The position numbers and the translations under genes are program-made. DNA of 64,000 bases from Pseudolabrys sp. FHR47. GTDB lineage: Bacteria; Pseudomonadota; Alphaproteobacteria; Rhizobiales; Xanthobacteraceae. How positions within the stretch are numbered: position 1 is the stretch's first letter; each line of letters starts with the position of its first letter. This document shows, piece after piece, positions 14,105 to 47,987 of this stretch. The stretch lies in the NCBI RefSeq assembly GCF_005153485.1, contig NZ_CP039740.1, forward strand, positions 3,041,001 to 3,105,000, in the 5' to 3' direction. Below the pieces are notes generated by a model. The model did not search any database and was not told where the DNA came from. It was given only the letters and a program-made list of their open reading frames with translations.

Positions 14105-14184
14105 TGCATTTTCCCATACAATCTCGTTGGCCGGAAATATGCATATCCCGGCTGGCCAGCCGTTTTGCCCTCAGGAGTCCCTTC

Positions 14185-14610: not shown

Positions 14611-14622
14611 CGTCTCGGACGC

Positions 14623-16331: not shown

Positions 16332-16365
16332 GGCGGCACTCTGTACAGCCGCAGGCCGCGTTCAA

Positions 16366-26191: not shown

Positions 26192-26196
26192 CTCTC

Positions 26197-28950: not shown

Positions 28951-28986
28951 GTCTGGCGAGGTCCTATCTGAGGGCAAGGAAATGCC

Positions 28987-29022
28987 GTCGCCCGGCCGCT
29001 TCGCGCGCAAGAGCCGGGCGAC
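28987..29022 (-). promoter_or_regulatory. Stem-loop between binding-protein and ATPase genes
   Basis: GTCGCCCGGC and GCCGGGCGAC are perfect 10-base arms around a 16-base loop, in the 81-bp gap after the PotD-like gene. There is no U-tract. Position and form match the hairpins after the other binding-protein genes of this window. Confidence 0.6.
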
Positions 29023-29031
29023 AACGATATC

Positions 29032-30069: not shown

Positions 30070-30189
30070 GGGACCCTCCAATAACGCGCTGTCGACGTGG
30101 TGTTTGGTCGTTTCGTTATCTTCCCGGACTGCATTGCCATGATTTTCCAACTGTGCCTTAATCGTCAAATTCATTCTCGGGCGCTATTC

Positions 30190-31247: not shown

Positions 31248-31643
31248 TTACTTCTCGAAAGCCGGGTCGATCGGCACGCGGTAGCCATTCACCAGGCGGT
31301 TGGTTTCATTCGCCATGCCGACCACGGCCATCAGTTCGCCGAACATCGCCGGCGTCATGCCGGCTTTCGCCGCCGCCGCGCCGTGGCTGGCGATGCAATA
31401 GCCGCAATTGTTGGTGACGCTGACGGCGACGTAGATCATCTCCTTCACCACCGGATCGAGCGCGCCCGGCGCCATGACCTCCTTCACGCTCTCCCAAGTC
31501 CGCTTGAGTGTCTTGGGGTCGTTGGCAAGATACTTCCAGAAATTGTTGACGTCATCGAGCTTGCGCGAGGTCTTGATGTCGTCGAACACCGCGCGCACTT
31601 CGGGCGAGGCGTCGGCATATTCGATCGCTTTCGGTTTGCTCAT
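31248..31643 (-). CDS. Carboxymuconolactone decarboxylase / AhpD-like protein
   Basis: This 131-residue helical protein has the AhpD-type motif NNCGYCIASH (Cys80, Cys83, His87), usual for disulfide-active peroxidase-like CMD proteins rather than true carboxymuconolactone decarboxylase. It overlaps the HcnB-like gene by ATGA and is the last gene of the TRAP/racemase/dehydrogenase operon. A likely role is removal of peroxide or other oxidant made by the flavin enzymes, but that is inferred from context only. Confidence 0.82.
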   Translation of the reverse strand: MSKPKAIEYADASPEVRAVFDDIKTSRKLDDVNNFWKYLANDPKTLKRTWESVKEVMAPGALDPVVKEMIYVAVSVTNNCGYCIASHGAAAAKAGMTPAMFGELMAVVGMANETNRLVNGYRVPIDPAFEK

Positions 31644-33031
31644 GATCCCTGGTCTCCCTGTGTGGTTGATAGCCCGGCGATGTCGCCGACGGTAACGGGT
31701 TTGATCGGCATGCGGATGCGGAAATAGCCGGCCTGTGCCGGTGTCTCTTCGCGCAAGCCCGCCAAGGTCTCACCGACGGTCAGCCCGCATAGGCGGCCCT
31801 GACACGGGCCCATGCCGGCACGCGTGAAAGCCTTGAGCTGGTTCGGCCCCGGACAGCCCTGCGCGGCCGCCGCGGCGACATCGCGCCGGCGCACTTCCTC
31901 GCAACGGCAGATGATTACATCGTCCAGGCGCGGCTGTCGCATCCCATCGCGCGGCCGGTACAGCACATCGAGAAAAGGCCGGACCAACAACTCGCGCGCA
32001 CGCCGCAACCGCGGCGCGGCATGATCCCTGCCCGCACCACGGCCGAAATCGTTGGCGATCGCCACCGCTGCAATCTCGCCGGACAGTTCCGCTGCCCGCG
32101 CACCGCCAATGCCGCCAAGATCGCCGGCGATGGACAGCCAATCGAGATTGGTGCGGCCGCTTCCGTCAATCACCGGCTGCCAGCTCAGCTGACGCTCATT
32201 CCAGCGATGCGCGCAGCGTGCCGCCATGGTGATGTTAGCGTTCGGCACAATGCCCTGATGAAGAAACGCCCGCTCGCAGGAAAGCTCGTGTGAACCCGAC
32301 GCATCGGTCCAGCGCACCGCCGATAGTCGACCCTCGCCCACAAGCGCGACACTGGAGACGTTGCGATGAACAGCAATCCCTGCGCGCCGGATCGCGGCAA
32401 GCAGCTTAACACCCTTGACGAGATAAGACGGTGCGGCAATCGCGCCGGGCAGATGCAGCGCCGCCTTGATCCTGTTGCCCGGCTCGGCAGTGTCGAGCAA
32501 GGCACGGACCCGCACGCCGGCCTGCAAATACTGATAGACGACAAGATAGAGCAGCGGCCCGCAGCCGATGAACACGGCGTCGTCTGCCACCGCGCCGGAT
32601 GTCTTGATCAGGATCTGCGCCGCGCCCGCGGTCATCACGCCGGGCAGTGTCCAGCCCTCGACCGGAAACGGCCGCTCCATGGCGCCGGTCGCCACCAGCA
32701 CACGCCGCGCCGCGCAATCACCGCCACCCTGCGGCGAGGACCAGGACAAACCGTCCTCGCCGATCCGCCACACCGTGGCGCGGCTTTTATAATCGGCGCC
32801 GCAGGCCATAAAGCGTTCGGCCAGATCGAGACCCGCAACATAGTCAGGCCCGAGAATGGCGGCACGCCGATCGCGACCGGCCTTCAGAACGTTGCGATAA
32901 ATTTGCCCGCCCGGCGACGGCTGCTCGTCGAACACCGCAACCGACATCCCCCGCGCGCGCAACGCGATCGCGGCGGCCATGCCGGCCGGTCCGGCACCGA
33001 CAATGGCGACATCCAGAGGTTCACTTGTCAT
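31640..33031 (-). CDS. NAD(P)/FAD oxidoreductase with BFD-like [2Fe-2S] domain (HcnB/OoxA type), copy 2
   Basis: This 463-residue paralogue of the 23363-24787 protein has FAD motif VAIVGAGPAGMAAAIALRARG and C-terminal cysteine domain ICRCEEV ... AGMGPCQGRLCG. The Cys before GMGPC in copy 1 is Ala here, while the paired CxC and CQGRLC cysteines remain. It overlaps the small [2Fe-2S] gene by 11 bp and the CMD-like gene by 4 bp. It should take electrons from the substrate-oxidising subunit encoded upstream. Confidence 0.86.
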   Translation of the reverse strand: MTSEPLDVAIVGAGPAGMAAAIALRARGMSVAVFDEQPSPGGQIYRNVLKAGRDRRAAILGPDYVAGLDLAERFMACGADYKSRATVWRIGEDGLSWSSPQGGGDCAARRVLVATGAMERPFPVEGWTLPGVMTAGAAQILIKTSGAVADDAVFIGCGPLLYLVVYQYLQAGVRVRALLDTAEPGNRIKAALHLPGAIAAPSYLVKGVKLLAAIRRAGIAVHRNVSSVALVGEGRLSAVRWTDASGSHELSCERAFLHQGIVPNANITMAARCAHRWNERQLSWQPVIDGSGRTNLDWLSIAGDLGGIGGARAAELSGEIAAVAIANDFGRGAGRDHAAPRLRRARELLVRPFLDVLYRPRDGMRQPRLDDVIICRCEEVRRRDVAAAAAQGCPGPNQLKAFTRAGMGPCQGRLCGLTVGETLAGLREETPAQAGYFRIRMPIKPVTVGDIAGLSTTQGDQGS

Positions 33032-33323
33032 CGCGAACCTCCGGCGCGCCGGACTGGCGCGTCACCGACATTCCCGCCCGCACGGTTTCGAGACAGGTCT
33101 GCCGGTTCGGATGGCCGTCAATGACGGCGAGGCAGTCGAAACACACGCCCATCATGCAATAGGGTTCGCGCGGCGCGCCGCTCACCGGAGTCGTGCGGAA
33201 CGGGCGCAGGCCGGCCGCCAGCAGGACCGCGGCGAGATTGTCGCCTTCCGCGGCGCGAACCAGCCGCCCGTCGACATGAATGTCGACCAGTGGCCCCTGT
33301 CGATCGTCAAGCAGCCTGAACAT
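33021..33323 (-). CDS. Small [2Fe-2S] subunit (HcnA/LhpE-like), copy 2
   Basis: These 100 residues carry the pattern YCMMGVCFDCLAVIDG ... QTC, nearly identical to copy 1 around the cluster. It overlaps both neighbouring subunit genes (17 bp with the HcnC-like gene, 11 bp with the HcnB-like gene), so stoichiometric translation of a trimer is likely. Confidence 0.87.
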   Translation of the reverse strand: MFRLLDDRQGPLVDIHVDGRLVRAAEGDNLAAVLLAAGLRPFRTTPVSGAPREPYCMMGVCFDCLAVIDGHPNRQTCLETVRAGMSVTRQSGAPEVRDDK

Positions 33324-34419
33324 CGAACCGTTTCGGTGAGAAGGGCGCGACCAGATTCAGGTCGAGGCCGCCGTCGCGAATGGCGCGCGCCATGGCGCCG
33401 GCATGGAAAGGCGCGAGCGTCACGCCACTGTGCACCGACAGCGCATAAGCCCGTGGCGTCTCGGCTGTCTGGTCGTAAACCGGCACGCCATCCGGCGTCA
33501 TGATGCGTAGCGCACTCCAGCTGCGCACCACGCGTAAATCGCGCAGCAGCGGAAATACCGTCACGGCGCGGCGGGCATTGTCGCGCAGCACCGGCAAGGT
33601 CGTCGCGTCGTCGAAACCCGCCTCCTCCGATGACTCGCCGAACAGGCAGCCGCCCTCGTCGGTCTGGCGGATGAAGCTGACGCCAAAGGGCAGGAAGGGT
33701 TTGACCTTTTCCGTCACCAGGATCTGCCCGCGCACCGGCCGCACCGGCGCGCTCAAGCCCAGTTGCGGCGCCAGCTTTGCGTTGCCGAGACCGCCGCAGA
33801 ACACGACGCTGCCGCAATGAACCGGACCGCCATCGGTGTCGATGCGGAAGCAGCCGCCTTCCCGTTTCACCGAGCGAACACAGCTATGCGAACGATAGCG
33901 GCCACCGAACTTGATCAGGGCCGTCATCAGCGCGCGCAGAAGATAAAGCGGATTGGCCGAGCCGTCGTGGGGCGAATAGATGGCGCCAACCACATCGGGC
34001 CCCACCGCGGGCAGCCGTTTCGCGATCTCCTCACGGGACAAAACCTCGACCCGGCTTTTCACACTGGCCTTGCGATTGAGCTCCTCCAGCATGGTCGCGC
34101 GTTGCATCAGCTCGGTCTCAGTCAGGCAAATGAAGCAGCCACCCGGCCGGCGGTAATGCACATCAATGCCGGTATCGGCTTCGAGCATCGCGGCGAAGTC
34201 TTTCCAGTCATCGGCCGTACGGCGCGACAAATCGGCATAGGCCGGCTCGGTCGCACCCTTGCCCAGCACCCACACATTGCCGAAATTGCCGCGCGCCGCA
34301 CGGAACGCGATGTCGCCTTCGTCGAGCAAGGTCACCGCCGCGCCGGCTTTAGCAAGACCATAAGACACCGCGGCCCCGACCGTGCCACCGCCGATGACGA
34401 CAAATTCAGACGCCCGCAT
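33307..34419 (-). CDS. FAD-dependent amine/amino acid dehydrogenase subunit (HcnC/OoxB type), copy 2
   Basis: This 370-residue DAO-family catalytic subunit has FAD motif FVVIGGGTVGAAVSYGLAKAG, ARGNFGNVWVLGKG after the FAD loop, and C-terminal IMTPDGVPVYDQTAE ... HSGVTLAPFHAG. It starts only 3 bp downstream of the racemase stop. Together with copy 2 of the other two subunits it forms a second complete dehydrogenase set, divergent in sequence from the first and so probably of different specificity. Confidence 0.87.
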   Translation of the reverse strand: MRASEFVVIGGGTVGAAVSYGLAKAGAAVTLLDEGDIAFRAARGNFGNVWVLGKGATEPAYADLSRRTADDWKDFAAMLEADTGIDVHYRRPGGCFICLTETELMQRATMLEELNRKASVKSRVEVLSREEIAKRLPAVGPDVVGAIYSPHDGSANPLYLLRALMTALIKFGGRYRSHSCVRSVKREGGCFRIDTDGGPVHCGSVVFCGGLGNAKLAPQLGLSAPVRPVRGQILVTEKVKPFLPFGVSFIRQTDEGGCLFGESSEEAGFDDATTLPVLRDNARRAVTVFPLLRDLRVVRSWSALRIMTPDGVPVYDQTAETPRAYALSVHSGVTLAPFHAGAMARAIRDGGLDLNLVAPFSPKRFDVQAA

Positions 34420-34422
34420 CGC

Positions 34423-35136
34423 TCAATCGTTCTGATATCGCCGCGGCCGCAGCGCGGCCTGGAACAGATTGACCATCGTGACCGTGTCATAGACCGGGAT
34501 GCCGAGGCGGTCCACGATATCGGCCGTGAACGGCGCCAGATTGGTGCATTCCGATACGATCGCGCCGACGTCCGGATGTTTGCGGATCAGGCTTTCGGCG
34601 GTGGCTACGACTTCCTCGCGCAAGGTGGCGTAGGTTACCGAATTGTCGCCTTCCTTGATCCAGCGCACGAAGTTGGACGTCGGCGCCATGCCGACCACCG
34701 GTGTGTCCTGTGCGATGCCGACCGCTTCGAGGTACGGACCGTTCAGCGTTGGACCGCTATAGGTGAGAATGCCGACACGCTTGCCGCGCGGTAGCATGCG
34801 CTCGACCATCGGCACCTGCAGCAGGCTGCTGGTCGCCACCGGCACGCTGCAATGATCGGCCAGTTCCTTCTGGTAGATCGACAGGAAGCCGCAGGTCGTG
34901 GTGATGCCATCGACGCCGGCGGCGATCAGTTCGTCCGCCGCGCGCTTGAACGGCTCGAGCAGGCTGGCATTGTGCAGTTCCGTCATCCGCGCCGGGATGG
35001 CGTCCTCGACAATGCGATACTGCACCGGAAACGACCATGTCTCGGCATTGCCGATATCGCCCAGATAACGGCGGAAGGTGCTTTTCACCATCAGGATGCC
35101 GAGGGTGACGCCGAAATAGGTCTTCTGTCGCTGCAT
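34423..35136 (-). CDS. Asp/Glu racemase-superfamily protein (maleate isomerase/AMDase-like)
   Basis: This 237-residue protein has both candidate catalytic cysteines, Cys82 in TTCGFLSI and Cys197 in SECTNLAPF. Racemases and maleate isomerases of this superfamily need both. It lies 24 bp after the TRAP permease stop and 3 bp before the FAD dehydrogenase gene. A role in converting an imported amino acid between L and D forms before oxidation is the natural reading; isomerase action on a dicarboxylate is the alternative. Confidence 0.82.
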   Translation of the reverse strand: MQRQKTYFGVTLGILMVKSTFRRYLGDIGNAETWSFPVQYRIVEDAIPARMTELHNASLLEPFKRAADELIAAGVDGITTTCGFLSIYQKELADHCSVPVATSSLLQVPMVERMLPRGKRVGILTYSGPTLNGPYLEAVGIAQDTPVVGMAPTSNFVRWIKEGDNSVTYATLREEVVATAESLIRKHPDVGAIVSECTNLAPFTADIVDRLGIPVYDTVTMVNLFQAALRPRRYQND

Positions 35137-35160
35137 GGATCCGTCTTCTTCGATTTGAGG

Positions 35161-37074
35161 TCAGTTGGTTTCGGCCTGCGGTGCCGGCACGCTTCTCGAG
35201 GCCGCCACACCGAAATAGTAGCGTCCACCGAAAATGACCGCGGCGATCAGGGCATAGGCGAAGATCGCGCGATAGAATTCGTGGACCGGACTGTACAGTG
35301 CGCAGACAGCACCAATCGCGAGCAGCGGCAGGCGCATCCACCATGGCAGCCTGCCGTCCGTATAGCCGATATAGCCGAGCACGATCAGAATTACGCCGCC
35401 GGAAATCGCCAGCGCCGTGCTGACGATCTCGAACCATGTACCGCGAAACGTCAGCGCCGGCTCGTAGATGAAGGCGATGCCGACGATGAAGCCGCCGGTC
35501 GCCATGCGAAAGGCGTGGAAGCCGGTCGACATCGGATTGGCCCGCGCGATGGCGGCGGCCGCATAGGATGCCGCGGCCACCGGCGGTGTCGCATCGGCCA
35601 GCACCGCGAAATACAGAACGAACAGATGGATGCTCAGCAGCGATGCGACATTGTATTCGGCGATCAGCGGCGCGCCGATTGCGGCGGTGATGATATAAGC
35701 GGGCGTCGTCGGCACCCCCATGCCGAGGAACAGGCAACACGCCGCGATCAGGATCACGAGCAGCAGCAGCGATCCGCCGGCCAACGTCTTGATGATGCCG
35801 GTGAACGCAAGCAACAGGCCGGTATTGGTGAGGCCGGCAGTGATGATGCCGGCTGCCGTCACCGCCACCGCAATAATGCAGATCGTCTGGCCGGCGCTGA
35901 CCAGCGAATCGAACACCTGCCGGGCCGTCATCCACGAATGACGGCGGATATAGGAGGAAACGAACACCGCGATGGTCGCCCAGAATGCGGCCATATAGGG
36001 CGAGAAGCCCTGCGCCATCAGCGTGATCAAAATGATCAGCGGAATGGCGAAATGAATGTCGCGCAGCACGTCCCGGAAGCTGGCGATCTCTTCCGGCGGC
36101 AGCGCACCGATGCCGAGACGCTTGGCGTGAAAATGAACACTGACGAAAATAGCGGCGTAATAGAGCACGGCGCCCATCGCGGCGGCGACGATGATATCGA
36201 GATACGGGACCGAGATCATTTCCGCCATGACGAAGGCCGCGGCGCCCATCACCGGCGGCATGATCAGGCCGCCGACACTCGCCGCCGCCTCGATGCCGCC
36301 AGCCAGTGGCGCTGGGAAACCAAGGCGTTTCATCTGCGGAATGGTGAGCGACCCCGTCACAACGACGTTCGCAACCGACGAGCCACTGGTCATGCCGAAC
36401 AGGCCGGATTCGATGACACACACTTTCGCCGGCCCGCCCGTGAAACGGCCGGCGGCGAAGCTGCCGATATTCTGGAACAGATGCCCCATGCCGCTGCCTT
36501 GAAGAAAGGCGCCGAACACCAGGAAGGCGGCAACGATCGTCGCCGAAATGCCGGTGAGCTGACCGTAAAGGCCGCTGCCATTCATCAGATAGAGAATGTC
36601 GGCCACCTGGTTGTAGGGCAGATCGCGGTAGTACCAGACGCCCGGCAGCAGATGGCAGATGAACATATAGAGGATGACCAGCGCCGTCAGGATCGACAGC
36701 GCGATCGACAGTGCGCGGCGCACCGCTTCCAGCACCAGCAGAGTGAGCGCCGTCGCCAGCACCATTTCGGTCATCGTCAGAGGATCGATGAAGGCGCTGC
36801 GGTCATAGACCCGCTCTGGATGCAGATAGATGTAGAGGCTCGGCAGGAATGCGATCACCGCGAGCACCCAGTCGAGAATGCTTGGCCGCGATTTCGGCGA
36901 CGTCGGGAGCGCCGGATAAAGCAGGAAGACCGGCGGTACGGCCAGCATCAGATGGATACTGGCCAGCTTCAAAGGTTCCGGAAAGCCAAAGCCGGTGAAA
37001 TAGAAATGGACGATGGCCGTCACGGCGAGCCAGACGGCAATCATCAGTTTGATCGGGCCTTCGAGCTGTCTCAT
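35161..37074 (-). CDS. TRAP transporter fused permease (DctQM, TAXI-associated)
   Basis: This 637-residue polytopic protein has the fused small (4TM) and large subunit layout of TAXI-TRAP systems, ending RYYFGVAASRSVPAP. The large-subunit signature appears as SGSSVANVVVTGSLTIPQM, and glycine-rich GMGVPTTPAYIITAAIGAP is present in the second half. It imports using a sodium gradient rather than ATP. It is encoded directly after its TAXI binding protein, with a hairpin between. Substrate unknown; amino acid-like from context. Confidence 0.9.
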   Translation of the reverse strand: MRQLEGPIKLMIAVWLAVTAIVHFYFTGFGFPEPLKLASIHLMLAVPPVFLLYPALPTSPKSRPSILDWVLAVIAFLPSLYIYLHPERVYDRSAFIDPLTMTEMVLATALTLLVLEAVRRALSIALSILTALVILYMFICHLLPGVWYYRDLPYNQVADILYLMNGSGLYGQLTGISATIVAAFLVFGAFLQGSGMGHLFQNIGSFAAGRFTGGPAKVCVIESGLFGMTSGSSVANVVVTGSLTIPQMKRLGFPAPLAGGIEAAASVGGLIMPPVMGAAAFVMAEMISVPYLDIIVAAAMGAVLYYAAIFVSVHFHAKRLGIGALPPEEIASFRDVLRDIHFAIPLIILITLMAQGFSPYMAAFWATIAVFVSSYIRRHSWMTARQVFDSLVSAGQTICIIAVAVTAAGIITAGLTNTGLLLAFTGIIKTLAGGSLLLLVILIAACCLFLGMGVPTTPAYIITAAIGAPLIAEYNVASLLSIHLFVLYFAVLADATPPVAAASYAAAAIARANPMSTGFHAFRMATGGFIVGIAFIYEPALTFRGTWFEIVSTALAISGGVILIVLGYIGYTDGRLPWWMRLPLLAIGAVCALYSPVHEFYRAIFAYALIAAVIFGGRYYFGVAASRSVPAPQAETN

Positions 37075-37103
37075 CGCTTTGGCTTTCTTCTTGGAGCCAC
37101 GAC

Positions 37104-37134
37104 GGCAGACGCCCGCCCGACACGGGCGCCTGCC
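37104..37134 (-). promoter_or_regulatory. Stem-loop between TAXI binding-protein and TRAP permease genes
   Basis: GGCAGACGCCCG and CGGGCGCCTGCC form 12-base arms with one mismatch around a 7-base loop, in the 73-bp gap after the binding-protein stop. It has no U-tract, like the other three binding-protein-linked hairpins of this window. Confidence 0.6.
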
Positions 37135-37147
37135 GGCGGCGCGCCGA

Positions 37148-38146
37148 TTACTTCATGAAACCCAATTCTTTATAGGCCTTTTCGGCGCCGGGGTGCAGCG
37201 GCACCGGCTGATCCTTCCAGGCCCGCGCCGGATCGTATTCGCCGAGCACCTTATAGATGTTGCCGAACGAGCCGCGGCTTTCGATCAAAGTCTTGGTGAT
37301 CTTGTAAACGTCGTTATCGGGCAGCTTCGACGACACCAGGATCACGGCCTCGAGAGACGTCACCGGCAGATCGGCATCGCCGGACTGAAGGCCGGTATAC
37401 GCCTTGGCCTTGATCACGCTCTTGCCGTAGCCGAATTGCGAGGCAAGATGATCCATCAGGGCTTTCGGGAATGCGACCAGTTTCGCGGCGCGTCGCCCGT
37501 TCTGTATTTCGAGTGCGATGCCGGTCGGCGCGCTGCCGGCGCCCCACAGCACATCGACCTGATTGTCCTGGAATGCCGAGACGAGTTGGCTGTAATTGGC
37601 ATTGATCAGCTTGCCACCCGCCTGCGCAATCTTGTCGCCCGAATTGTTGTAGAAGGTCAGCGCGCGCTGCAGCGTCAGTTCTTCCGAGGTCGCGCGCGGC
37701 GACGTGCCAATACGGATTTTCGGATCGGCGAGAATCTGGTCGAGCGGCCGCTTTTCGTCGGCCGGCACGATGACGTGGAATTCCGCCGGGGCCCAGGTGC
37801 CGCCTATCGAGCGCAGCGACGGCATTTTCTTGTCGTAAGGCGCTTCGCCCTTGGTCGCGGCCGCGGCCAGAAAGTCGATGCCCATGCCGATCTGGGCGAT
37901 ACCGTTCTCGATCAGCGCCGGATTGTCGCGACCACCGCCGGGAACGATACGGATTTTGATGTCCTGATTCTTCTCCATCACGATGTTGGCGAGACCCGTG
38001 ACGATGGTGTACCAGCTTCCGCCCGGCGAACCGGCGGCCCACACATAGTTCTCGACCGCCTTGGCCGGCGAAGCCTGGGCGATGAAAAGTGCAGCGGCCG
38101 CAATGGCCCCGGCCTGCAACACGAACCGTTTCGTTAAAGCATTCAT
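37148..38146 (-). CDS. TAXI-family TRAP transporter substrate-binding protein
   Basis: This 332-residue periplasmic protein from the ATG at 38146 is preceded by AAAGGAG. A signal peptide (FVLQAGAIAAAALFIAQASPAKA) precedes the TAXI-type opening YVWAAGSPGGSWYTIVTGLANIV. It should capture the substrate and hand it to the fused TRAP permease. The open frame extends upstream in phase but adds no signal, so the shorter start is used. It lies 37 bp after the PLP lyase gene. Confidence 0.9.
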   Translation of the reverse strand: MNALTKRFVLQAGAIAAAALFIAQASPAKAVENYVWAAGSPGGSWYTIVTGLANIVMEKNQDIKIRIVPGGGRDNPALIENGIAQIGMGIDFLAAAATKGEAPYDKKMPSLRSIGGTWAPAEFHVIVPADEKRPLDQILADPKIRIGTSPRATSEELTLQRALTFYNNSGDKIAQAGGKLINANYSQLVSAFQDNQVDVLWGAGSAPTGIALEIQNGRRAAKLVAFPKALMDHLASQFGYGKSVIKAKAYTGLQSGDADLPVTSLEAVILVSSKLPDNDVYKITKTLIESRGSFGNIYKVLGEYDPARAWKDQPVPLHPGAEKAYKELGFMK

Positions 38147-38183
38147 GACCGTCTCCTTTTTACTCGACATGATGAAATTCAGA

Positions 38184-39404
38184 TCAGCCCGCCGAAGCTC
38201 TTGCATCAATCTTGGCGAGGTTGATGTGCTGCAAGCCTTGCGCGAGATCGCGCTTGAGGTCGTCGATGTGTTCGAGGCCGATATAGAGGCGGACCAGCAC
38301 GCCTTCTTCCGTCCATTGCGTCGCCGTTCGCGCATGCGCCGGGTCGCCGTGCAGGACGAGGCTTTCGAAACCGCCCCATGAAAAACCGAGCGCAAAAAGC
38401 TTCAGACTTTCGATGAAGGCGGTCGCCTGTTGCATCGAGGAGGTGTTAAGGACGATGGCGAACAAACCCGACGCGCCCTCGAAATCGCGTTTCCAGATCG
38501 AGTGATCGGGATGCGACGGCAGGCCGGGATGAATGACCCGGCGAACCTGTGGCATGGTCTCGAGCCAGGACGCCAGTGCCAGACCCGATTCCTGATGCTG
38601 CCTGAGCCGCGCCGCCAGCGTTCGCAGGCCCCGCGCGGCGAGATACACATCATCAGGCGATGCATGATAGCCAAGCCAGTTCGCTGCCTCGCGCAGCGCG
38701 CGATAATGCTCCGCGCCGCATGTCACGAGACCGAGCATCGCGTCGGAATGGCCGACGATGAATTTGGTGGCGGACTGGGCGACGATATCGACGCCGAGCG
38801 CCATCGGCTTGCAAAACAGCGCCGTCGCCCAGGTGTTGTCGCAGACTGTGATCACTCCGCGCTCGCGGGCGGCCTTGCAGATCGCCGGGATGTCCTGGAC
38901 TTCGAAGGTCAGCGAGCCCGGCGATTCCAGATAGACCAGGCGCGTATTCGGCTTGAACAGCGCGGCGATGCCGGCGCCGATGCGCGGATCGTAATAAGTA
39001 ACCTCGATGCCATTGCGGGCGATGAAGGCGCCGAGGCTGGTGCGCACCGGCTCGTAGACGGCGTCCGTCACCAGGACGTGATCGCCGGGCTTGAGAAACG
39101 CCACCAGCGGCAACACGCAGGCGGCAAGCCCGGACGGGACGGCAATCGAGCCGTAGCCGCCTTCAAGCTGAGAGATCGCGTCTTCAAAGGCGAAGGTGTC
39201 CGGCGTTCCAAACCGGCCGTAGAACACCTGTCCCTTGTCGAAACGGTGTTTTTTGGCCTCGTCAATGTCGCCGACCTTGTCGAAGACGATGGTCGAGGCG
39301 CGATGGACCGGGACATTAACAGCACCGGAGTGCGACTCCGGATGCCGGCCAACATGACCGACCAGAGTTTCGGCGCGCCAATCGCTGGGATCCATGTCTG
39401 GCAT
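38184..39404 (-). CDS. Cystathionine beta-lyase-like PLP enzyme (Cys/Met metabolism family)
   Basis: These 406 residues (from ATG 39404; ATG 39425 and ATG 39395 also possible; AGGA precedes 39404) form a fold-type I PLP enzyme. It has FYGRFGTPDTFAFEDAISQLEGG, the PLP-ring Asp in TVCDNTW (Asp189) and the Schiff-base lysine in SATKFIVGHSD (Lys214). Such lyases cleave C-S bonds of cystathionine or S-substituted cysteines to pyruvate, ammonia and a thiol. It is the first gene of the importer/racemase/dehydrogenase operon and divergent from the GntR gene. Confidence 0.85.
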   Translation of the reverse strand: MPDMDPSDWRAETLVGHVGRHPESHSGAVNVPVHRASTIVFDKVGDIDEAKKHRFDKGQVFYGRFGTPDTFAFEDAISQLEGGYGSIAVPSGLAACVLPLVAFLKPGDHVLVTDAVYEPVRTSLGAFIARNGIEVTYYDPRIGAGIAALFKPNTRLVYLESPGSLTFEVQDIPAICKAARERGVITVCDNTWATALFCKPMALGVDIVAQSATKFIVGHSDAMLGLVTCGAEHYRALREAANWLGYHASPDDVYLAARGLRTLAARLRQHQESGLALASWLETMPQVRRVIHPGLPSHPDHSIWKRDFEGASGLFAIVLNTSSMQQATAFIESLKLFALGFSWGGFESLVLHGDPAHARTATQWTEEGVLVRLYIGLEHIDDLKRDLAQGLQHINLAKIDARASAG

Positions 39405-39454
39405 GCCCAATCCTGATCGCTGCATTTATCCGGCATAATTATCCTGACTCATCT

Positions 39455-39500
39455 GCATGCCATTCGTCAATCTTGTATACCAAATAAAAAAATGGCATGC
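39455..39500. promoter_or_regulatory. 10-bp perfect inverted repeat flanking TTGTATAC; candidate GntR operator
   Basis: GCATGCCATT (39455-39464) and AATGGCATGC (39491-39500) are perfect 10-base inverted arms around 26 bases that include TTGTATACCAA (39473-39483), a GntR/FCD core like the one at 14085. The site lies in the 212-bp gap between the PLP lyase operon (minus) and the GntR operon (plus), so it probably controls both. The rest of the gap shows no gene. Confidence 0.6.
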
Positions 39501-39616
39501 TCTTTATCGGCGCGAAGACAGGCCGTTCGTGCCACCAGACGGTCGCCCACAGGGGCCGTTGTTCGCCAAGAGGCTGCGTGCCGATATTCGATTCAGGGAA
39601 TCGAAGGATTCGACAT

Positions 39617-40315
39617 ATGGACACCGCCGTTCCGCCGACACCGCTGCCGCAGCAAGTGGCGGACTACATCCGCGACCTGATCATTCACGACCGGCTCAAG
39701 CCGGGCGAACGCATCCGCGAACGGGCGATTGCAGACACGCTCAGCGTGTCGCGAACGCCGATGCGCGAAGCCCTCAAGATCCTGGCGATGGAACGGCTGG
39801 TCGAACTCAAGCCGAATCGCAGCGCCGTTGTCGTCAACGCGACCGACACCGAAATCGCCAATATGCTCACCGTCTATACCGAGCTCGAAGGGCTCGGCGG
39901 CAAGATCGCCTGCCGTATGGCGACCGAGGCCGATTTCGGACGCGTGGCGCGTTATCATCAGGTTCTCATCGACGCGTTTGAGAAAGAGGATCGCGCCGCC
40001 TATTTCGCCGCGAACCAGGCGCTGCACCTCGCGATCATCGCGGCCTCGCGCAATCCGACGCTCATCGAGATGCACGGCCATCTCAATATCCGCCTCTACC
40101 GCATCCGTTATCTCGCCGTGATGCGGCTGCAGGAGTGGCGCGCCGCCGCCAGCGAACACGCTCCTCTCGTCGAAGCGCTGATGCAGCGCGACGGCGACCG
40201 TCTCGCTTTCCTGCTCAAGGAACACCTGGGTTTCGCCTGGCGATTGATCGAATCCTGGGTGCCGCCGAAGCCCGTCTTCAATGTCCAGTCTCTGGAAGAC
40301 GCCACCGGTGGCTAA
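39617..40315 (+). CDS. GntR-family transcriptional regulator (FCD subfamily)
   Basis: This 232-residue regulator from the ATG at 39617 (GAAGGATT 9 bases before) has a winged helix at residues 8-75 (RIRERAIADTLSVSRTPMREALKIL ... KPNRSAVVV). An FCD ligand domain follows (YTELEGLGGKIA, NQALHLAIIAAS, SEHAPLVEALM). The open frame extends upstream into the operator region and is rejected. It is the first gene of an operon with the quinone reductase, the BisC-like enzyme and RidA, and divergent from the PLP-lyase/TRAP operon. Confidence 0.88.
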   Translation: MDTAVPPTPLPQQVADYIRDLIIHDRLKPGERIRERAIADTLSVSRTPMREALKILAMERLVELKPNRSAVVVNATDTEIANMLTVYTELEGLGGKIACRMATEADFGRVARYHQVLIDAFEKEDRAAYFAANQALHLAIIAASRNPTLIEMHGHLNIRLYRIRYLAVMRLQEWRAAASEHAPLVEALMQRDGDRLAFLLKEHLGFAWRLIESWVPPKPVFNVQSLEDATGG

Positions 40316-40360
40316 CGTCCGGTCGGCCAAGTTTATCGCGTAGAAAGAAGAGTGCCTGCT

Positions 40361-41335
40361 GTGTCTAAAGCAATCATCCAGGATACCTTTGGCGGCCCCG
40401 AAGTTATGGGGTGGCGCGAGCGGCCGGACGCCGCGCCCGGACCCGGCGAGGTTCTCGTCCGCCACACCGCCATCGGCGTCAATTTCATCGATATCTACTG
40501 CCGGCGCGGCAGCATTCCGCTGATGAAAGTGCCCGGCACGCCGGGCATGGAGGCGGCCGGCGTCGTGGAAAGCATCGGCCCAGATGTGACCACTCTCACC
40601 GTTGGACAGCGCGTCGGCTATGTCATGCCGGCGCCTGGCGCTTACTGTGAGCGCCGCATCGTTCCGGCCGAGCGCATGATCGCCCTGCCCGACGATATCG
40701 ACGATCGCTCCGCCGCGGCGATGCTGCTCAAGGGCATGACGGCCGAGCAGTTGCTGCACAAAAGCACGCAGGCAACCGCCGGCGACACCGTGCTGATCCA
40801 TGCGGCAGCCGGCGGCGTCGGCCTGCTTTTGACCGCCTGGGCCAAGGCGCTGGGCTGCACCGTGATCGGCACTGTCGGCTCCAAGGCCAAAGTCGGCATG
40901 GTGCGCGAAGCCGGCGCCGATCATGTCATCGTCTCGACCGAAGAAGATGTTGTCGCCGCCGTTAATACCATCACGCAAGGGCGCGGCTGCCGTTATATCT
41001 ATGACGGCGTCGGCGCCGACACGTTTGAACTGTCGCTCAAGACGGTCGCCAAATTCGGCCATGTCGTCAGCTTCGGCAGTTCGTCAGGCGCGGTGCCGCC
41101 GGTCAATATCGCCGTGCTGTCGCCGAAATGCGTTGTGCTGTCGCGACCGCAGGTGTTCCCTTATATCGCCGAGCGCGCCGACCTAACCGCGGCGTCCAAC
41201 AATCTGTTCGCCGCGATGCGCAAGAAGATCATCAAGAGCGACATCAAGCACACTTATGCGCTGGCCGATGCCGCCACCGCGCACCGCGACCTTGAATCCC
41301 GGCGCACCGTCGGGCAGATCGTATTGCTGCCATAA
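40361..41335 (+). CDS. NADPH:quinone oxidoreductase (zeta-crystallin-like MDR)
   Basis: This 324-residue zinc-free medium-chain reductase from the GTG at 40361 (the purine-rich GAAAGAAG ends about 10 bases before) has HTAIGVNFIDIYCRRG near residue 35, VIESIGP-like glycine motif (VVESIGPDV), and the NADPH-binding LIHAAAGGVGLLLTAWAKALG. A GTG at 40352 is in frame but too close to the purine tract. Zeta-crystallin relatives reduce quinones or alkenals. Here it lies 45 bp after the regulator and 20 bp before the BisC-like gene. Confidence 0.9.
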   Translation: MSKAIIQDTFGGPEVMGWRERPDAAPGPGEVLVRHTAIGVNFIDIYCRRGSIPLMKVPGTPGMEAAGVVESIGPDVTTLTVGQRVGYVMPAPGAYCERRIVPAERMIALPDDIDDRSAAAMLLKGMTAEQLLHKSTQATAGDTVLIHAAAGGVGLLLTAWAKALGCTVIGTVGSKAKVGMVREAGADHVIVSTEEDVVAAVNTITQGRGCRYIYDGVGADTFELSLKTVAKFGHVVSFGSSSGAVPPVNIAVLSPKCVVLSRPQVFPYIAERADLTAASNNLFAAMRKKIIKSDIKHTYALADAATAHRDLESRRTVGQIVLLP

Positions 41336-41355
41336 CGAACCCAACCAGAGCCGCC

Positions 41356-43671
41356 ATGCTTCCCGAGCCCGACCGCCACACGATCGCCACGCATTGGGGC
41401 ACATACCATGCGCAATTCGAGGCCGGGAAGCTTGTTGCGCTCAAACCGGTCGATGGCGACCCCGACCCCTCGCCTCTTTCCGAGGGCATGATCGAGGCGC
41501 TCGGCAGCCCGGTTCGTATTCGGCGTCCTGCCGTGCGCAAGTCCTTTCTAAAGAACGGCCACCGCGCTGGCGGGAAGCTGCGCGGCGCCGAGCCTTTCAT
41601 CGAAGTCCCCTGGGATGAGGCGCTCGATCTTGCCGCTTCCGAACTCGATCGCGTCCGCAAGGCCCATGGCAATGGCGCGATTTATGGCGGCTCCTATGGA
41701 TGGGCCAGCGCCGGCCGCTTTCATCATGCGCAGAGCCAGATCCACCGCTTCCTCAATTGCATCGGCGGCTATGTCAAATCGGTGCAGAACTACAGCTACG
41801 CCGCAGCCGACACCATCGTCCCGCATATCATCGGCGACAAGCGCGGATTGGTGTCACATCACACCACCTGGCCGGTGATCGCCCATTACTCCAAGCTCAT
41901 TGTGATGTTCGGCGGCGCGCCGCGCAAGAACGCGCAGGTCAGCTCCGGCGGCATTTCGCGGCACATCCTGCGGGAGTCGCTCGATCAGGCGCGGTGCAAC
42001 GGCGCCCAACTTATTTCCATCAGCCCGATCCGCGATGACACGGAAGGCGCCGAATGGCTGCCTATCCGGCCCGGCACCGACGTCGCGCTGATGCTGGGCA
42101 TCGCGCACACTTTGCTCGTCGAAAACCTGGCGGACCGCGCTTTCCTCGACCGCTACACCACAGGCTTCGATCGCTTCACCAGCTATCTCAATGGCCGCAG
42201 CGACGGCGTGGTGAAAAGCGCCGACTGGGCGGCGGCGATCGCCGACATTCCGGCCGACACCATTCGCGATCTGGCGCGTCGCATGGCGGCAAGTCGCACC
42301 ATGATCCAGATGGCGTGGTCGCTGCAGCGCGCCGATCATGGCGAACAGCCTTACTGGATGGCGATCACGCTCGCCGCCATGCTGGGCCAGATCGGCCTGC
42401 CCGGCGGCGGCTTCGGTTTCGGTTATGGCTCGGTCAACGGCGTCGGCCATGCCACGCCGGAGATCGGATGGCCGTCACTGCCGCAGGGCGACAACAAGAT
42501 CAGCGATTACATCCCGGTCGCGCGTATCACCGACATGCTGCTCGATCCCGGCGGCCGTTACGATTTCAACGGCGAGAGCCGCGTTTATCCCGACATCCGG
42601 CTGGTCTACTGGGCCGGCGGCAATCCCTTCCATCATCATCAGGACCTCAACCGCCTGCGGCAGGCATGGCAGCGCCCGGAAACTGTCATCGTTCATGACT
42701 CGTGGTGGAATGCACTCGCCCGCCATGCCGACATCGTCCTGCCGGCGACGACCGTGCTGGAACGGAATGACATCGCCGCGTCGGCGCGCGACCGTTTCAT
42801 CGCCGCGTCGCACCGCGTGGCGACGCCTGCCGGCGAAGCGCGCGATGATTTTGCGATCTTCTCAGCGATGGCCGAACGCCTCGGCGCCGCGGAAGTCTTT
42901 ACCGACGGCCGCGATACCGAAGGCTGGCTACGTTATCTGTTTACGCTTGCCCGGCAGAAGCTCGAAGCGGCGGGACACGCCCTGCCTGACTTCGAAACCT
43001 TCTGGAAAGACGGCATGCATGTTCTACCTCAGCCCGAGCTGTCGCAGCAAAAGTCGTTGCTAACCGAGTATCGCGAAGCGCCCGAGCGCCATCCGCTGAA
43101 GACCCCGTCCGGGCGTATCGAGATTTTCTCGTCGACCATCGACAGCTTCGGTTACGCGGATTGTCCCGGCCACCCCGCCTGGCTCGAACCTTACGAATGG
43201 CTGGGCTCGGCCGAGGCTTCGCGCTTCGGCCTGCATCTGATCTCGAACCAGCCCGAAACGCGGCTGCACAGCCAGTACGACCATGTCGGCCGCTCGCATG
43301 CCAGCAAGATCAAGGGACGCGAGCCGCTGCGCATCAACCCGCTTGACGCCGGAAAACGCGGCATTGCCGACAACGACATCGTTCGCGTTTTCAACGACCG
43401 CGGCTCGTGTCTCGCCGTCGCTATCGTGTCCGATGCCTTACGTCCGAGCGTGGTGCAGCTCTCGACCGGCGCCTGGCTCGACCCGCTCGATCCCGCGCGC
43501 GACGGCTCGCTGGACAAGCACGGCAACCCCAATGTGCTCACGCGCGATCAAGGCACATCGAGCCTGGCCCAGGGCCCGAGCGCGCAAACCTGTCTGGTCG
43601 AGATCGAGAAATATTCGGAACCGGCACCGCCAATCACCGCCTTCGACCCGCCGGCCATCACCGAACGCTAG
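41356..43671 (+). CDS. Molybdopterin oxidoreductase, BisC/DMSO-TMAO reductase type, cytoplasmic
   Basis: This 771-residue bis-MGD enzyme has no signal peptide. The Mo-ligand region is YGGSYGWASAGRFHHAQSQ (candidate ligand Ser113), which is the biotin-sulfoxide/TMAO reductase form, not the Cys or SeCys of formate dehydrogenases. Later GGNPFHHHQDLNRLRQAW and the C-terminal molydop_binding domain (SNQPETRLHSQYDHVG) fit BisC. No N-terminal [4Fe-4S] cysteines are seen. It reduces S- or N-oxides; in this operon, with a C-S lyase and RidA, a sulfoxide amino acid is the likely substrate. Confidence 0.87.
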   Translation: MLPEPDRHTIATHWGTYHAQFEAGKLVALKPVDGDPDPSPLSEGMIEALGSPVRIRRPAVRKSFLKNGHRAGGKLRGAEPFIEVPWDEALDLAASELDRVRKAHGNGAIYGGSYGWASAGRFHHAQSQIHRFLNCIGGYVKSVQNYSYAAADTIVPHIIGDKRGLVSHHTTWPVIAHYSKLIVMFGGAPRKNAQVSSGGISRHILRESLDQARCNGAQLISISPIRDDTEGAEWLPIRPGTDVALMLGIAHTLLVENLADRAFLDRYTTGFDRFTSYLNGRSDGVVKSADWAAAIADIPADTIRDLARRMAASRTMIQMAWSLQRADHGEQPYWMAITLAAMLGQIGLPGGGFGFGYGSVNGVGHATPEIGWPSLPQGDNKISDYIPVARITDMLLDPGGRYDFNGESRVYPDIRLVYWAGGNPFHHHQDLNRLRQAWQRPETVIVHDSWWNALARHADIVLPATTVLERNDIAASARDRFIAASHRVATPAGEARDDFAIFSAMAERLGAAEVFTDGRDTEGWLRYLFTLARQKLEAAGHALPDFETFWKDGMHVLPQPELSQQKSLLTEYREAPERHPLKTPSGRIEIFSSTIDSFGYADCPGHPAWLEPYEWLGSAEASRFGLHLISNQPETRLHSQYDHVGRSHASKIKGREPLRINPLDAGKRGIADNDIVRVFNDRGSCLAVAIVSDALRPSVVQLSTGAWLDPLDPARDGSLDKHGNPNVLTRDQGTSSLAQGPSAQTCLVEIEKYSEPAPPITAFDPPAITER

Positions 43672-43703
43672 TCTTTATCAAGTCCACTCGAAATGAGAGC
43701 GTC

Positions 43704-44045
43704 ATGAAGCGAATTGACAAGAACAGCCGCCGCAGCCGCGCCGTCGTGGTCGGCAATATGGTGCATATGGGCGGCCAGGTGGCGGACGACAAAGCCGCCG
43801 ACATTCGCGTTCAGACCGCACAGACGCTCGCCAAGATTGACGCCCTGCTCGCCGAATGCGGCTCGTCGAAAGCCAAGCTGATCAGCGCCACGATCTGGCT
43901 CAAGAGCATGAGCGACTATGACGGCATGAACGATGTCTGGGACCGCTGGATCGACCCCGAGAATCCCCCGACGCGCGCCTGCGGCGAGGTGCGCCTCGCC
44001 GACGACCGCTATCTGGTCGAGATTATCGCCACCGCAATGCTCTGA
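43704..44045 (+). CDS. RidA/YjgF/YER057c-family enamine/imine deaminase-like protein
   Basis: This 113-residue protein from ATG 43704 (32 bp after the BisC-like stop) has the conserved Arg of Rid proteins in TRACGEVRLAD (Arg91), and the typical AQTLAKIDALLAECGS helix. RidA proteins hydrolyse the 2-aminoacrylate and other imines that PLP lyases and FAD amino-acid oxidases release. That activity would fit the neighbouring PLP lyase and amine dehydrogenase. The open frame extends upstream inside the BisC-like gene and is rejected. Convergent with the monooxygenase gene. Confidence 0.87.
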   Translation: MKRIDKNSRRSRAVVVGNMVHMGGQVADDKAADIRVQTAQTLAKIDALLAECGSSKAKLISATIWLKSMSDYDGMNDVWDRWIDPENPPTRACGEVRLADDRYLVEIIATAML

Positions 44046-44101: not shown

Positions 44102-45226
44102 CTATGCCGCCTCGAGCGGAACGTCGCTCGCCGAATAGCCGTAGACCCAGTCGGCGTTGCCGCCCTGCTTCAGCCATTCATTGCCGCGCGAGCCGATCTG
44201 CACCTTGGCGGTGCGCTCCTTGCGCGCGTTCTCATAGCGCTTGAAGGCGTCGGCGATGCCGGCGTCGCCGGCCCCGCGCAGGGCACGGCCGAGCACCACC
44301 GCATCCTCGATCGCCATGCAGGCGCCCTGCGCCATAAACGGCACCATCGGATGGCAGGCGTCGCCCAGCAATGTCGTGCGGCCGACCGACCATTGCGGTA
44401 GCGGCTCGCGGATATAGAGCGCCGACTTGGTGACGCTGTCGCAGGCGTCGAGCAAGGCGCGCGCTTCCGGATGGAAGCCGGCATAGGCACGGCGCAATTC
44501 CTCGACATCGCCTTCCATGGTCCAGGATTCGTGACGCCAGTCGTCCTGCGCCGTGGTGGCGAAGATGAAGGTCTCGCGGCCGCGGTTCAGCGGAAACGTC
44601 ACGATCTGCAAATCGGGCGTCGGGCCCCACCATTTGGTGAAGGCGTCGAGGTTCGGCACGTTCAGCTTGCTGCGATCGACCACCGCCCGGTACGACACCA
44701 GGCCGGTGAACTGCGGATGTTCGGGGCCGAACATGGCTGTGCGCGTCGGCGAGTGGATGCCGTCGGCGCCGACCAGCGCATCGACCGTGCGCGTCTCGCC
44801 ATTGGCAAAGCGAACCGAGGGCCGCTCGCCGCGAAGGTCGATCGCCGCGACGCGGTAGCCGAGCTTGATGATATCGTCCGGCAACTGTCGGCGTAGAGCC
44901 TGCAGCAGATCGGCTCGGTGGATGGTCAATTGTGGCGCGCCGTACTTCTCCTCGGCGGCCTTCGCCATCTCGAGCCGCGAGGTCTCCTCGCCCGTGTCCC
45001 AGGTCCGGCTGATGCGGTGTGTCGGCCGCGCCGCGGTCTCCTGCAGATCCTCGAAGACGCCGAGGCTCTTCAGCGCCGCCACGGCGTTGGGCGTGAGGTT
45101 GATGTCGGCGCCGACGCGCTTGTAGTCCGAGGCCTGCTCGTAGACTTCGACTTCATGGCCGGCCTGGCGCAGCGCGATCGCCGCCGCCAGGCCACCAATG
45201 CCGCCGCCGTTGATGCCGAACTTCAT
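44102..45226 (-). CDS. FAD-dependent aromatic monooxygenase (salicylate hydroxylase/NicC-like)
   Basis: This 374-residue group A flavoprotein monooxygenase has the N-terminal FAD fingerprint INGGGIGGLAAAIALRQAG, the DG motif LVGADGIHSPTR and the second FAD motif LLGDACHPMVPFMAQGACMAIEDAV. It ends GGNADWVYGYSASDVPLE, which resembles 6-hydroxynicotinate 3-monooxygenase NicC and salicylate hydroxylases. Such enzymes hydroxylate an ortho or ipso carbon, sometimes with decarboxylation. It is the last gene of the minus-strand operon of iclR, cupin, VOC and SDR, which points to aromatic or pyridine acid catabolism. Exact substrate unknown. Confidence 0.88.
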   Translation of the reverse strand: MKFGINGGGIGGLAAAIALRQAGHEVEVYEQASDYKRVGADINLTPNAVAALKSLGVFEDLQETAARPTHRISRTWDTGEETSRLEMAKAAEEKYGAPQLTIHRADLLQALRRQLPDDIIKLGYRVAAIDLRGERPSVRFANGETRTVDALVGADGIHSPTRTAMFGPEHPQFTGLVSYRAVVDRSKLNVPNLDAFTKWWGPTPDLQIVTFPLNRGRETFIFATTAQDDWRHESWTMEGDVEELRRAYAGFHPEARALLDACDSVTKSALYIREPLPQWSVGRTTLLGDACHPMVPFMAQGACMAIEDAVVLGRALRGAGDAGIADAFKRYENARKERTAKVQIGSRGNEWLKQGGNADWVYGYSASDVPLEAA

Positions 45227-45237
45227 GACTACCCCCG

Positions 45238-47323: not shown

Positions 47324-47420
47324 CTTCTAAACTCCCTCGTCCCGGCCGGTCCGGATACAGCAACAAGTTCGAACGGCCGCCGCCACATCGAGCGGCAGCC
47401 GCTGAAGCATTTTAGCGGAT

Positions 47421-47945: not shown

Positions 47946-47987
47946 CTCTGAACTCCTTTATAACCGGGTGAACTCATGTACTGGTCG

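What the first reader, a model, noticed from the sequence alone, without database searches (positions are those of the whole stretch)
31248..44045. Possible uptake and breakdown system for S-substituted cysteine sulfoxides
Two divergent operons share one putative GntR site. One holds a C-S lyase-like PLP enzyme, a TAXI-TRAP importer, an Asp/Glu racemase, a three-part amine dehydrogenase and an AhpD-like protein. The other holds a GntR regulator, a quinone reductase, a BisC-type S/N-oxide reductase and RidA. Sulfoxide reduction, beta-lysis to 2-aminoacrylate and a thiol, RidA hydrolysis of aminoacrylate, and racemisation/oxidation of remaining amino acid make a coherent path. I know of no described system with this gene set. 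The substrate is inference; N-oxide amino acids are an alternative.
Basis: partly seen in the sequence, partly recalled or inferred. Interest (0 to 1): 0.72.

Follow-up and report, generated by a model that had tools for sequence, protein, structure and literature searches.

The report
Amino-acid racemise-oxidise module with sulfoxide reductase
A block of bacterial genes that looks built to import an unusual amino acid, flip it to its mirror image, oxidise it and strip off its nitrogen, with a molybdenum sulfoxide reductase and a sulfur-cleaving enzyme as swappable extras; the exact food molecule is still unknown.

Summary
The two divergent operons share a conserved operator island (window 39454-39483) whose two-box pattern occurs once in this genome, and the operons recur in other Hyphomicrobiales families. 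The proposed linear path (sulfoxide reduction, then beta-lysis, then RidA) is not what comparison supports. In 13 loci holding racemase, three-part dehydrogenase and GntR, the BisC-type enzyme is in 9 and the cystathionine-lyase-like enzyme in 9: both in 7, BisC only in 2, lyase only in 2, neither in 2. The Rid protein is in 11 of 13, including all 4 loci without a lyase, and its closest characterised kin with solved structures are Rid2 proteins, which hydrolyse imines from D-amino-acid dehydrogenases.

The core is therefore best read as a Dad-like 'racemise, oxidise, deaminate' module made from other protein families. The BisC-type reductase and the lyase are add-on entry routes. BisC keeps the Tyr/Trp pair of S-oxide-competent enzymes, so an amino-acid sulfoxide remains the best guess for loci that carry it, including this one. 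The substrate is untested. New variant of a known kind.

The parts
31248..31643 (-). AhpD/carboxymuconolactone-decarboxylase-like protein, CxxC at residues 80-83
   Evidence: PF02627 63.8 bits; CxxC; copy at least 70% identical in 10 of 13 core loci, window included
31640..33031 (-). dehydrogenase alpha subunit (OoxA/OdhA type, FAD + BFD-type [2Fe-2S])
   Evidence: Pyr_redox_2, Fer2_BFD, SO_alpha_A3; GxGxxG; four Cys at residues 375-415
33021..33323 (-). dehydrogenase gamma subunit, [2Fe-2S] ferredoxin
   Evidence: PF13510 88.2 bits; C-x4-C-x2-C-x11/12-C from residue 56
33307..34419 (-). dehydrogenase beta (catalytic, DAO/ThiO-like) subunit
   Evidence: PF01266 201.9 bits; GxGxxG and an R-x-W (not checked that the R-x-W aligns with the published site); nearest solved: glycine oxidase
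34423..35136 (-). cofactor-independent Asp/Glu/hydantoin-type racemase; Cys82 and Cys197
35161..37074 (-). fused TRAP permease
   Evidence: TIGR02123 541 bits, cut-off 321
37148..38146 (-). TAXI solute-binding protein
   Evidence: TIGR02122 130 bits, cut-off 84; nearest solved 1us4/1us5
38184..39425 (-). PLP-dependent cystathionine-beta-lyase-like C-S lyase
   Evidence: TIGR01324 471 bits, cut-off 366; E. coli CBL-equivalent Y56, R58, Y111, D185, K210, S339, W340, R372 kept; R59 is F, D116 is T, Y238 is N (numbering recalled and mapped by eye on the alignment)
39454..39483 (.). shared putative GntR operator island, two boxes (TGCATGCC and TTGTATACCAA)
39617..40315 (+). GntR/FCD regulator (frame open from 39497)
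   Evidence: PF00392, PF07729
40352..41335 (+). zinc-type alcohol dehydrogenase / quinone reductase
   Evidence: PF08240, PF00107; copy at least 67% identical in 5 of 13 core loci, window included
41356..43671 (+). BisC-type molybdopterin S/N-oxide reductase; Ser147, Tyr114, Trp116
   Evidence: TIGR00509 988 bits, cut-off 1018; alignment with 1eu1; residues in window + 120 homologues
43668..44045 (+). Rid-family imine deaminase, Rid2-like
   Evidence: PF01042 82.9 bits; nearest solved: 3k12, 3kjj (uncharacterised), then PA5083 and other RidA-family proteins incl. PSPTO_0102

Best explanation
A GntR-controlled uptake and catabolic locus for an unusual amino acid. The TAXI-TRAP importer brings it in. 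The core then works like the Pseudomonas dad pathway: a two-cysteine racemase interconverts the L and D forms, a three-subunit FAD/[2Fe-2S] dehydrogenase oxidises one form to the imino acid and passes electrons on, and a Rid2-type protein hydrolyses the imine to a 2-oxo acid plus ammonia. The BisC-type molybdoenzyme is an entry step that removes the oxygen from an S-oxide (or N-oxide) form of the amino acid, and the beta-lyase is a second exit for thioether amino acids. Shown: gene content, conserved shared operator island, co-inheritance, intact key residues, and that Rid follows the dehydrogenase and not the lyase. Inferred: GntR binding, direction of racemisation, D-specificity of the dehydrogenase, a sulfur amino-acid sulfoxide as substrate, the role of AhpD (redox protection) and of the quinone reductase.
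For: Core genes recur in 13 loci from several families of Hyphomicrobiales, two of them on plasmids, with swapped transporters (TAXI-TRAP, a solute-binding-protein ABC set, amino-acid ABC) and swapped accessory enzymes. Rid in 11 of 13, all 4 lyase-less loci included. Window Rid scores 77 bits with PA5083 and 76.5 with PSPTO_0102, both Rid2, against 31 with archetypal YjgF. Rid2 and Rid3, but not RidA or Rid1, proteins deaminate iminoarginine released by DauA, and DadY (Rid2) acts on the imine from DadA (PMC5619798 and PMC9714295, abstract and passages). Dehydrogenase beta and gamma motifs agree with those published for opine and D-hydroxyproline dehydrogenases (PMC4575208 passages). Racemase Cys pair conserved and racemase fold. 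[quoted passage not shown]). An RraA-type aldolase gene lies between AhpD and TAXI in L029 (annotated), L035 and L036 (Pfam) and L037 (near-identical open frame), and a 2-hydroxyacid dehydrogenase follows BisC or Rid in L020 and L022: both fit a 2-oxo acid product.
Against: No enzyme activity or ligand was tested. Rid is missing in the fetched stretch of two loci (L020, L021) that have the lyase. The window's own locus has neither RraA nor the 2-hydroxyacid dehydrogenase among its 12 genes. The racemase superfamily also includes isomerases and decarboxylases. The dehydrogenase type also covers opine (secondary amine) and L-proline enzymes, so D-specificity is assumed. The alpha-subunit cysteine spacing does not match the published pattern as written; the four Cys are there with a wider gap and the Pfam BFD domain is met. 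No SBP56 methanethiol oxidase in the genome. All Rid proteins tested in PMC5619798 also deaminate 2-aminoacrylate in vitro, so a link with the lyase is not excluded. The racemase occurs at 60-70% identity without the dehydrogenase set nearby in four genomes (L038, L039, L040, L043).
Confidence: 0.58

Rival explanations
1. One reading: import of S-substituted cysteine sulfoxides, reduction by BisC, beta-elimination by the lyase to a thiol and 2-aminoacrylate, Rid hydrolysis; racemase and dehydrogenase only mop up.
For: In all 7 core loci whose lyase belongs to the window's clade, BisC is present too (in one genome, G060, the lyase is on another contig). Eight catalytic positions of CBL kept. 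BisC S-oxide competence. Rid proteins also act on 2-aminoacrylate in vitro.
Against: BisC without lyase in 2 of 9, lyase without BisC in 2 of 9, core without either in 2 of 13, Rid kept in 4 of 4 lyase-less loci and missing in 2 of 9 loci with lyase. Window Rid is nearer to Rid2 proteins than to archetypal RidA. No methanethiol oxidase gene of the SBP56 family.
Confidence: 0.2
2. The substrate is an N-oxide or N-hydroxy amino acid; BisC removes the oxygen from nitrogen and the core deaminates the product.
For: [quoted passage not shown] BisC sits with the amine-oxidising core even where the C-S lyase is absent (L029, L035).
Against: A C-S-lyase-like enzyme of one clade joins BisC in 7 core loci, which N-oxidation does not call for. 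Tyr114 marks S-oxide capability but does not exclude N-oxides.
Confidence: 0.12
3. An opine-type system: the three-subunit dehydrogenase splits an N-carboxyalkyl amino acid, and the racemase acts on the released amino acid.
For: Three-subunit opine dehydrogenases (OdhB-C-A) have the same gene order and similar motifs (PMC4575208 passages). ABC importers with a solute-binding protein replace TAXI-TRAP in L006 and L051.
Against: Alpha subunit only about 47% identical to the Agrobacterium vitis and Leisingera proteins that follow the Bosea copy in the plasmid list (their function is not known to me). Rid and racemase are not mentioned in the main text of that paper (0 occurrences).
Confidence: 0.1
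4. Canavanine-type breakdown: the PLP enzyme is a gamma-lyase and BisC reduces the released hydroxyguanidine.
For: Canavanine gamma-lyase and hydroxyguanidine formation are known in Rhizobium and Pseudomonas (PMC10018355 passages). That molybdenum enzymes can reduce N-hydroxy groups is recalled.
Against: The PLP enzyme is of the cystathionine-beta-lyase type (TIGR01324). None of the 12 genes is a B3/4-type editing protein such as the one beside the known canavanine operon (families; no dedicated search was made). Direct comparison with the known gamma-lyase was not made (paper not held).
Confidence: 0.04

Closest known systems
dad locus of Pseudomonas (DadX racemase, DadA D-amino-acid dehydrogenase, DadY Rid2)
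   Same: Logic: racemase + D-amino-acid dehydrogenase + Rid2 imine deaminase under a dedicated regulator (PMC9714295 abstract and passages)
   Different: Here the racemase is cofactor-independent (two Cys) and not PLP-dependent, the dehydrogenase has three subunits with [2Fe-2S], the regulator is GntR/FCD, and there are importer, BisC and lyase
Three-subunit opine dehydrogenase / D-hydroxyproline dehydrogenase (OdhB-C-A)
   Same: beta-gamma-alpha gene order, FAD and [2Fe-2S] motifs (PMC4575208 passages)
   Different: Partner racemase and Rid; alpha cysteine spacing differs from the published pattern; substrate unknown
BisC / MtsZ / DorA S- and N-oxide reductases
   Same: Domains, Ser147, Tyr/Trp pair
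   Different: Just under the TIGR00509 cut-off; encoded in an amino-acid catabolic operon
Cystathionine beta-lyase MetC
   Same: TIGR01324, eight catalytic positions
   Different: Arg59 replaced by Phe in all 8 locus members; sits with an importer, not with methionine biosynthesis genes
TAXI-type TRAP transporters
   Same: Both subunit models above cut-off
   Different: Ligand unknown; replaced by ABC importers in two sister loci

Membership tests
Dad-type alanine catabolic locus | racemase + D-amino-acid-dehydrogenase-type flavoprotein + Rid in one regulated locus | tested here: met
   Family matches; conserved in sister loci (gene content only, not activity)
Dad-type alanine catabolic locus | PLP-dependent alanine racemase DadX and single-subunit DadA | tested here: not met
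   Racemase is PF01177; dehydrogenase is three-part
Three-subunit opine/D-hydroxyproline dehydrogenase | beta GxGxxG and R-x-W; gamma C-x4-C-x2-C-x11/12-C; alpha GxGxxG | tested here: met
   (presence of the patterns; position of R-x-W not checked)
Three-subunit opine/D-hydroxyproline dehydrogenase | alpha C-x-C-x15-20-C-x4-C spacing | tested here: not met
   Not found, even with x14-21; C-x-C and C-x4-C are present with a wider gap and PF04324 Fer2_BFD is met
Three-subunit opine/D-hydroxyproline dehydrogenase | activity on opine or D-hydroxyproline | not testable with these tools
   needs enzyme assay
BisC-type S/N-oxide reductase (TIGR00509) | score over curated cut-off | tested here: not met
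   988.4 against 1017.55
BisC-type S/N-oxide reductase (TIGR00509) | Mo-binding Ser and the Tyr/Trp pair of S-oxide-competent enzymes | tested here: met
   Ser147, Tyr114, Trp116 (Tyr/Trp criterion from PMC5122715; Ser as Mo ligand and which Tyr/Trp are meant are recalled)
Cystathionine beta-lyase (TIGR01324) | score over cut-off and catalytic residues | tested here: met
   471 against 366; residues
Cystathionine beta-lyase (TIGR01324) | Arg59 and Asp116 of the E. coli enzyme | tested here: not met
   F and T in all 8 locus members; other relatives lack Asp116 too and several lack Arg59, and none of the 120 nearest public homologues has Arg59
Archetypal RidA (TIGR00004) | score over cut-off | tested here: not met
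   51.4 against 106.25
Rid2 subfamily | closest similarity to Rid2 proteins | tested here: inconclusive
   PA5083 and PSPTO_0102, about 77 bits, are Rid2 by PMC5619798; no subfamily model or tree was run
Asp/Glu racemase superfamily (PF01177) | two catalytic cysteines | tested here: met
   C82 and C197 at least 98% conserved in window + 120 homologues
TAXI-TRAP importer | TAXI binding protein and fused permease over cut-off | tested here: met
Cysteine-sulfoxide catabolic system | growth on or turnover of an S-alkyl-cysteine sulfoxide | not testable with these tools
   needs assay

The most novel reading that the evidence does not exclude
A dedicated, horizontally patchy catabolic system for amino-acid S-oxides in which a cytoplasmic molybdoenzyme reduces the imported sulfoxide and the thioether amino acid is then shared between a racemase / three-subunit dehydrogenase / Rid2 branch and a beta-lyase branch. 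The core would be a second, independently assembled 'dad' solution used for unusual amino acids across Proteobacteria.
Probability: 0.35. Interest if true: 0.68.

Novelty: new variant of a known kind. Interest (0 to 1): 0.5.

Why it matters
It would give a function to a racemase family without one here (1008 proteins at E up to 1e-60 among 4798 candidates; that set may include other functions) and to a set of BisC-type enzymes and Rid2-like proteins that travel with it. It suggests that the 'racemise, oxidise, deaminate' strategy has been assembled at least twice from unrelated proteins. If the sulfoxide reading holds, it marks a route by which soil and plant-associated bacteria use oxidised sulfur amino acids.

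Tried and rejected
Canavanine-type breakdown was considered first and given low weight (the key paper was not held). Typing the racemase by sequence against solved structures gave nothing; by fold it is close to tied between allantoin, hydantoin and Asp racemases, so the substrate is not set. TAXI ligand by nearest solved structure was too distant to use. Arg59 and Asp116 of CBL proved weak marks: Phe59 is in 45 of 49 homologues at 62% identity or more, in 9 of 11 at 58-62% and in 14 of 60 below that, and Arg in none of the 120; Asp116 is absent from all the relatives aligned. Independent recruitment of the lyase in L036/L037 is only weakly supported (AU p = 0.038, group named after seeing the loci, nearby branches weak). 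Methanethiol oxidase search negative. Paper searches for the gene set: searches returned no paper; one search listed 2 papers holding 4 of 5 terms, whose abstracts as listed are on other subjects; one search was too broad and off target; one search was on lyase residues only. The study of R59/D116 in CBL was seen only as a reference-list entry. Contig-length matching of homologue lists is only a proxy: shared longest-contig lengths were 9 for racemase and lyase, 11 for racemase and BisC, 10 for lyase and BisC, 5 for all three, among 120 racemase rows, 120 BisC rows and the best 60 of 120 lyase rows.

In the lyase tree, duplicates, the distant rows L002, L003, L009, L032, and hits with a stop or short cover (L008) were left out.
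Full report
What is there. Between 31248 and 44045 there are 12 genes in two divergent groups. Leftward: a PLP enzyme, TAXI binding protein, fused TRAP permease, Asp/Glu-type racemase, a three-gene dehydrogenase (DAO subunit, small [2Fe-2S] subunit, FAD/[2Fe-2S] subunit) and an AhpD-like protein. Rightward: GntR, quinone reductase, BisC-type molybdoenzyme and Rid protein.

The shared site. Between the PLP and GntR genes lies TTGTATACCAA (39473-39483) behind TGCATGCC (39454-39461). In six loci of the same type, window included, the island keeps 25 of 31 columns invariant against 16 of 200 in the flanks (the island was picked by eye). Of 16 regions looked at, these six have TTGTATRCCAA; seven more have related motifs (TTGCATACAA, TTGCATGCAA, TTGAATACAA twice, TTGTCGACAA, TATGCATGCATA twice); three (upstream of GntR in L023 and L034, and L048) have none of these. 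The two-box pattern occurs once in the genome with up to 3 mismatches; the reversed control gives 0. The single box with one mismatch is no better than chance in the window. That GntR binds it is inference.

Spread. The racemase marks the system: in the order, 61 of 397 genomes match at E up to 1e-60, of which 12 (own included) are at least 60% identical and the rest at most 53%. In the class 26 of 385 match, two of them (own included) at least 60%. In the phylum sample only the own genome, 1 of 398, at E up to 1e-80. In the own family 2 of 139 (own included; the other 58% identical), and none of the 5 other genomes listed from the own genus. In the family of G366, 3 of 60; of G023, 1 of 190; of G107, 3 of 11; all three at E up to 1e-80. 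The locus is rare and patchy, as expected for horizontal exchange; a plasmid of Bosea vestrisii typed as conjugative carries one version. The lyase was found at E up to 1e-130 in 11 of 397 genomes of the order; 7 of these are 67% identical or more, own included, and 4 are 52-53%.

Core and accessories. I took the 13 loci (window included) that hold racemase, the three dehydrogenase genes and GntR: window, L006, L020, L021, L022, L023 with L054 (one genome), L034 with L024 (one genome, G060, two contigs, so closeness is not shown there), L029, L035, L036, L037, L051, L048. Rid: 11 of 13 (not in the fetched stretch of L020 and L021). AhpD at 70% or more: 10 of 13. TAXI-TRAP: 10 of 13; L006 and L051 have instead a solute-binding protein (SBP_bac_8), an ABC ATPase and a fused permease, and L048 lies near an amino-acid ABC set. 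BisC: 9 of 13. PLP lyase: 9 of 13. Quinone reductase: 5 of 13. BisC and lyase together in 7, BisC alone in L029 and L035, lyase alone in L036 and L037, neither in L051 and L048. On a racemase tree the pattern needs 2 changes for BisC, 2 for the lyase and 3 for TAXI. The lyase of the window's type forms one clade (100/100) of 8 rows; that of L036/L037 falls elsewhere, and forcing them together is only weakly rejected (p = 0.038). These loci are related, so the counts are not independent events.

The product is probably a 2-oxo acid: RraA-type aldolase genes lie between AhpD and TAXI in the Bosea plasmid (annotated), in L035, in L036 and, as a near-identical open frame, in L037; a 2-hydroxyacid dehydrogenase follows BisC in L020 and Rid in L022. 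The window's own locus has neither, so this is indirect.

BisC. It is a full-length molybdopterin protein that aligns from residue 12 with residue 12 of the DMSO reductase chain 1eu1, leaving no room for an export signal. [quoted passage not shown] among the window and 120 homologues Tyr is kept in 120 of 121, Trp and Ser in 121 of 121. S-oxide reduction is therefore chemically allowed; it is not shown. Four homologues of 56-63% identity that I looked up sit in quite different operons, so the family as a whole is a general oxide reductase recruited by many pathways.

Lyase. Eight catalytic positions of E. coli CBL (Y56, R58, Y111, D185, K210, S339, W340, R372; numbering recalled and mapped on the alignment) are kept in all 8 locus members; Glu235 is Gln in three; Arg59 is Phe, Asp116 Thr and Tyr238 Asn in 8 of 8. 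Phe59 is in 45 of 49 public homologues at 62% identity or more and in 14 of 60 below 58%, so it is a mark of this clade but not its alone. A changed distal pocket is inference. Relatives of this lyase stand beside amino-acid importers in three other bacteria looked up and beside cysteine dioxygenase and rhodanese genes in Aminobacter, in keeping with a catabolic role.

Verdict on the finding. The linear sulfoxide, beta-lysis, RidA path is at most one branch. The likeliest reading is a Dad-like module for an unusual amino acid with an S-oxide reductase and a lyase as extras; the substrate question stays open. No paper describing the gene set turned up in the searches made, which cover open-licence PubMed Central papers only.

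Noticed in passing
window 25061-30174 (-), LysR-like 30236-31135 (+): A second import/oxidation operon lies right beside the locus: spermidine/putrescine-type ABC importer genes with a solute-binding protein plus a DAO-type FAD oxidoreductase. The divergent neighbour reads as a LysR regulator by its sequence (not scanned).
   Followed up: partly
window 22218-23645 (-): Another DAO-type FAD oxidoreductase (PF01266 244.5 bits), so the window looks rich in amine or amino-acid oxidation genes.
   Followed up: no
window 44102-49019 (-): FAD monooxygenase (best NCBIfam 3-hydroxybenzoate 6-monooxygenase, below cut-off), SDR, glyoxalase-fold protein and IclR regulator: probably aromatic-compound degradation, a separate unit.
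   Followed up: no
L033 (Agrobacterium tumefaciens pAt15955) 3579-17050: A BisC-type reductase (56% identical) in an operon with urocanate hydratase, histidine ammonia-lyase, GST and a glycine-betaine-type ABC importer; possibly breakdown of an oxidised histidine derivative.
   Followed up: no
L048/L055 (Agrobacterium tumefaciens strain 186 plasmid pAt): A distant version of the core (racemase 60%, dehydrogenase, Rid, GntR) with aspartate-dehydrogenase-domain protein, dipeptidase, semialdehyde dehydrogenase and GMC oxidoreductase.
   Followed up: partly
L022 17440-19821 (and ORFs of similar size in L020, L021): A transketolase-like protein of about 800 aa follows AhpD in the f29-family loci (Pfam scan of the L022 copy only).
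   Followed up: no
L038, L039, L040, L043: Racemase homologues of 60-70% identity stand without the dehydrogenase set nearby, so the racemase has other partners too.
   Followed up: no
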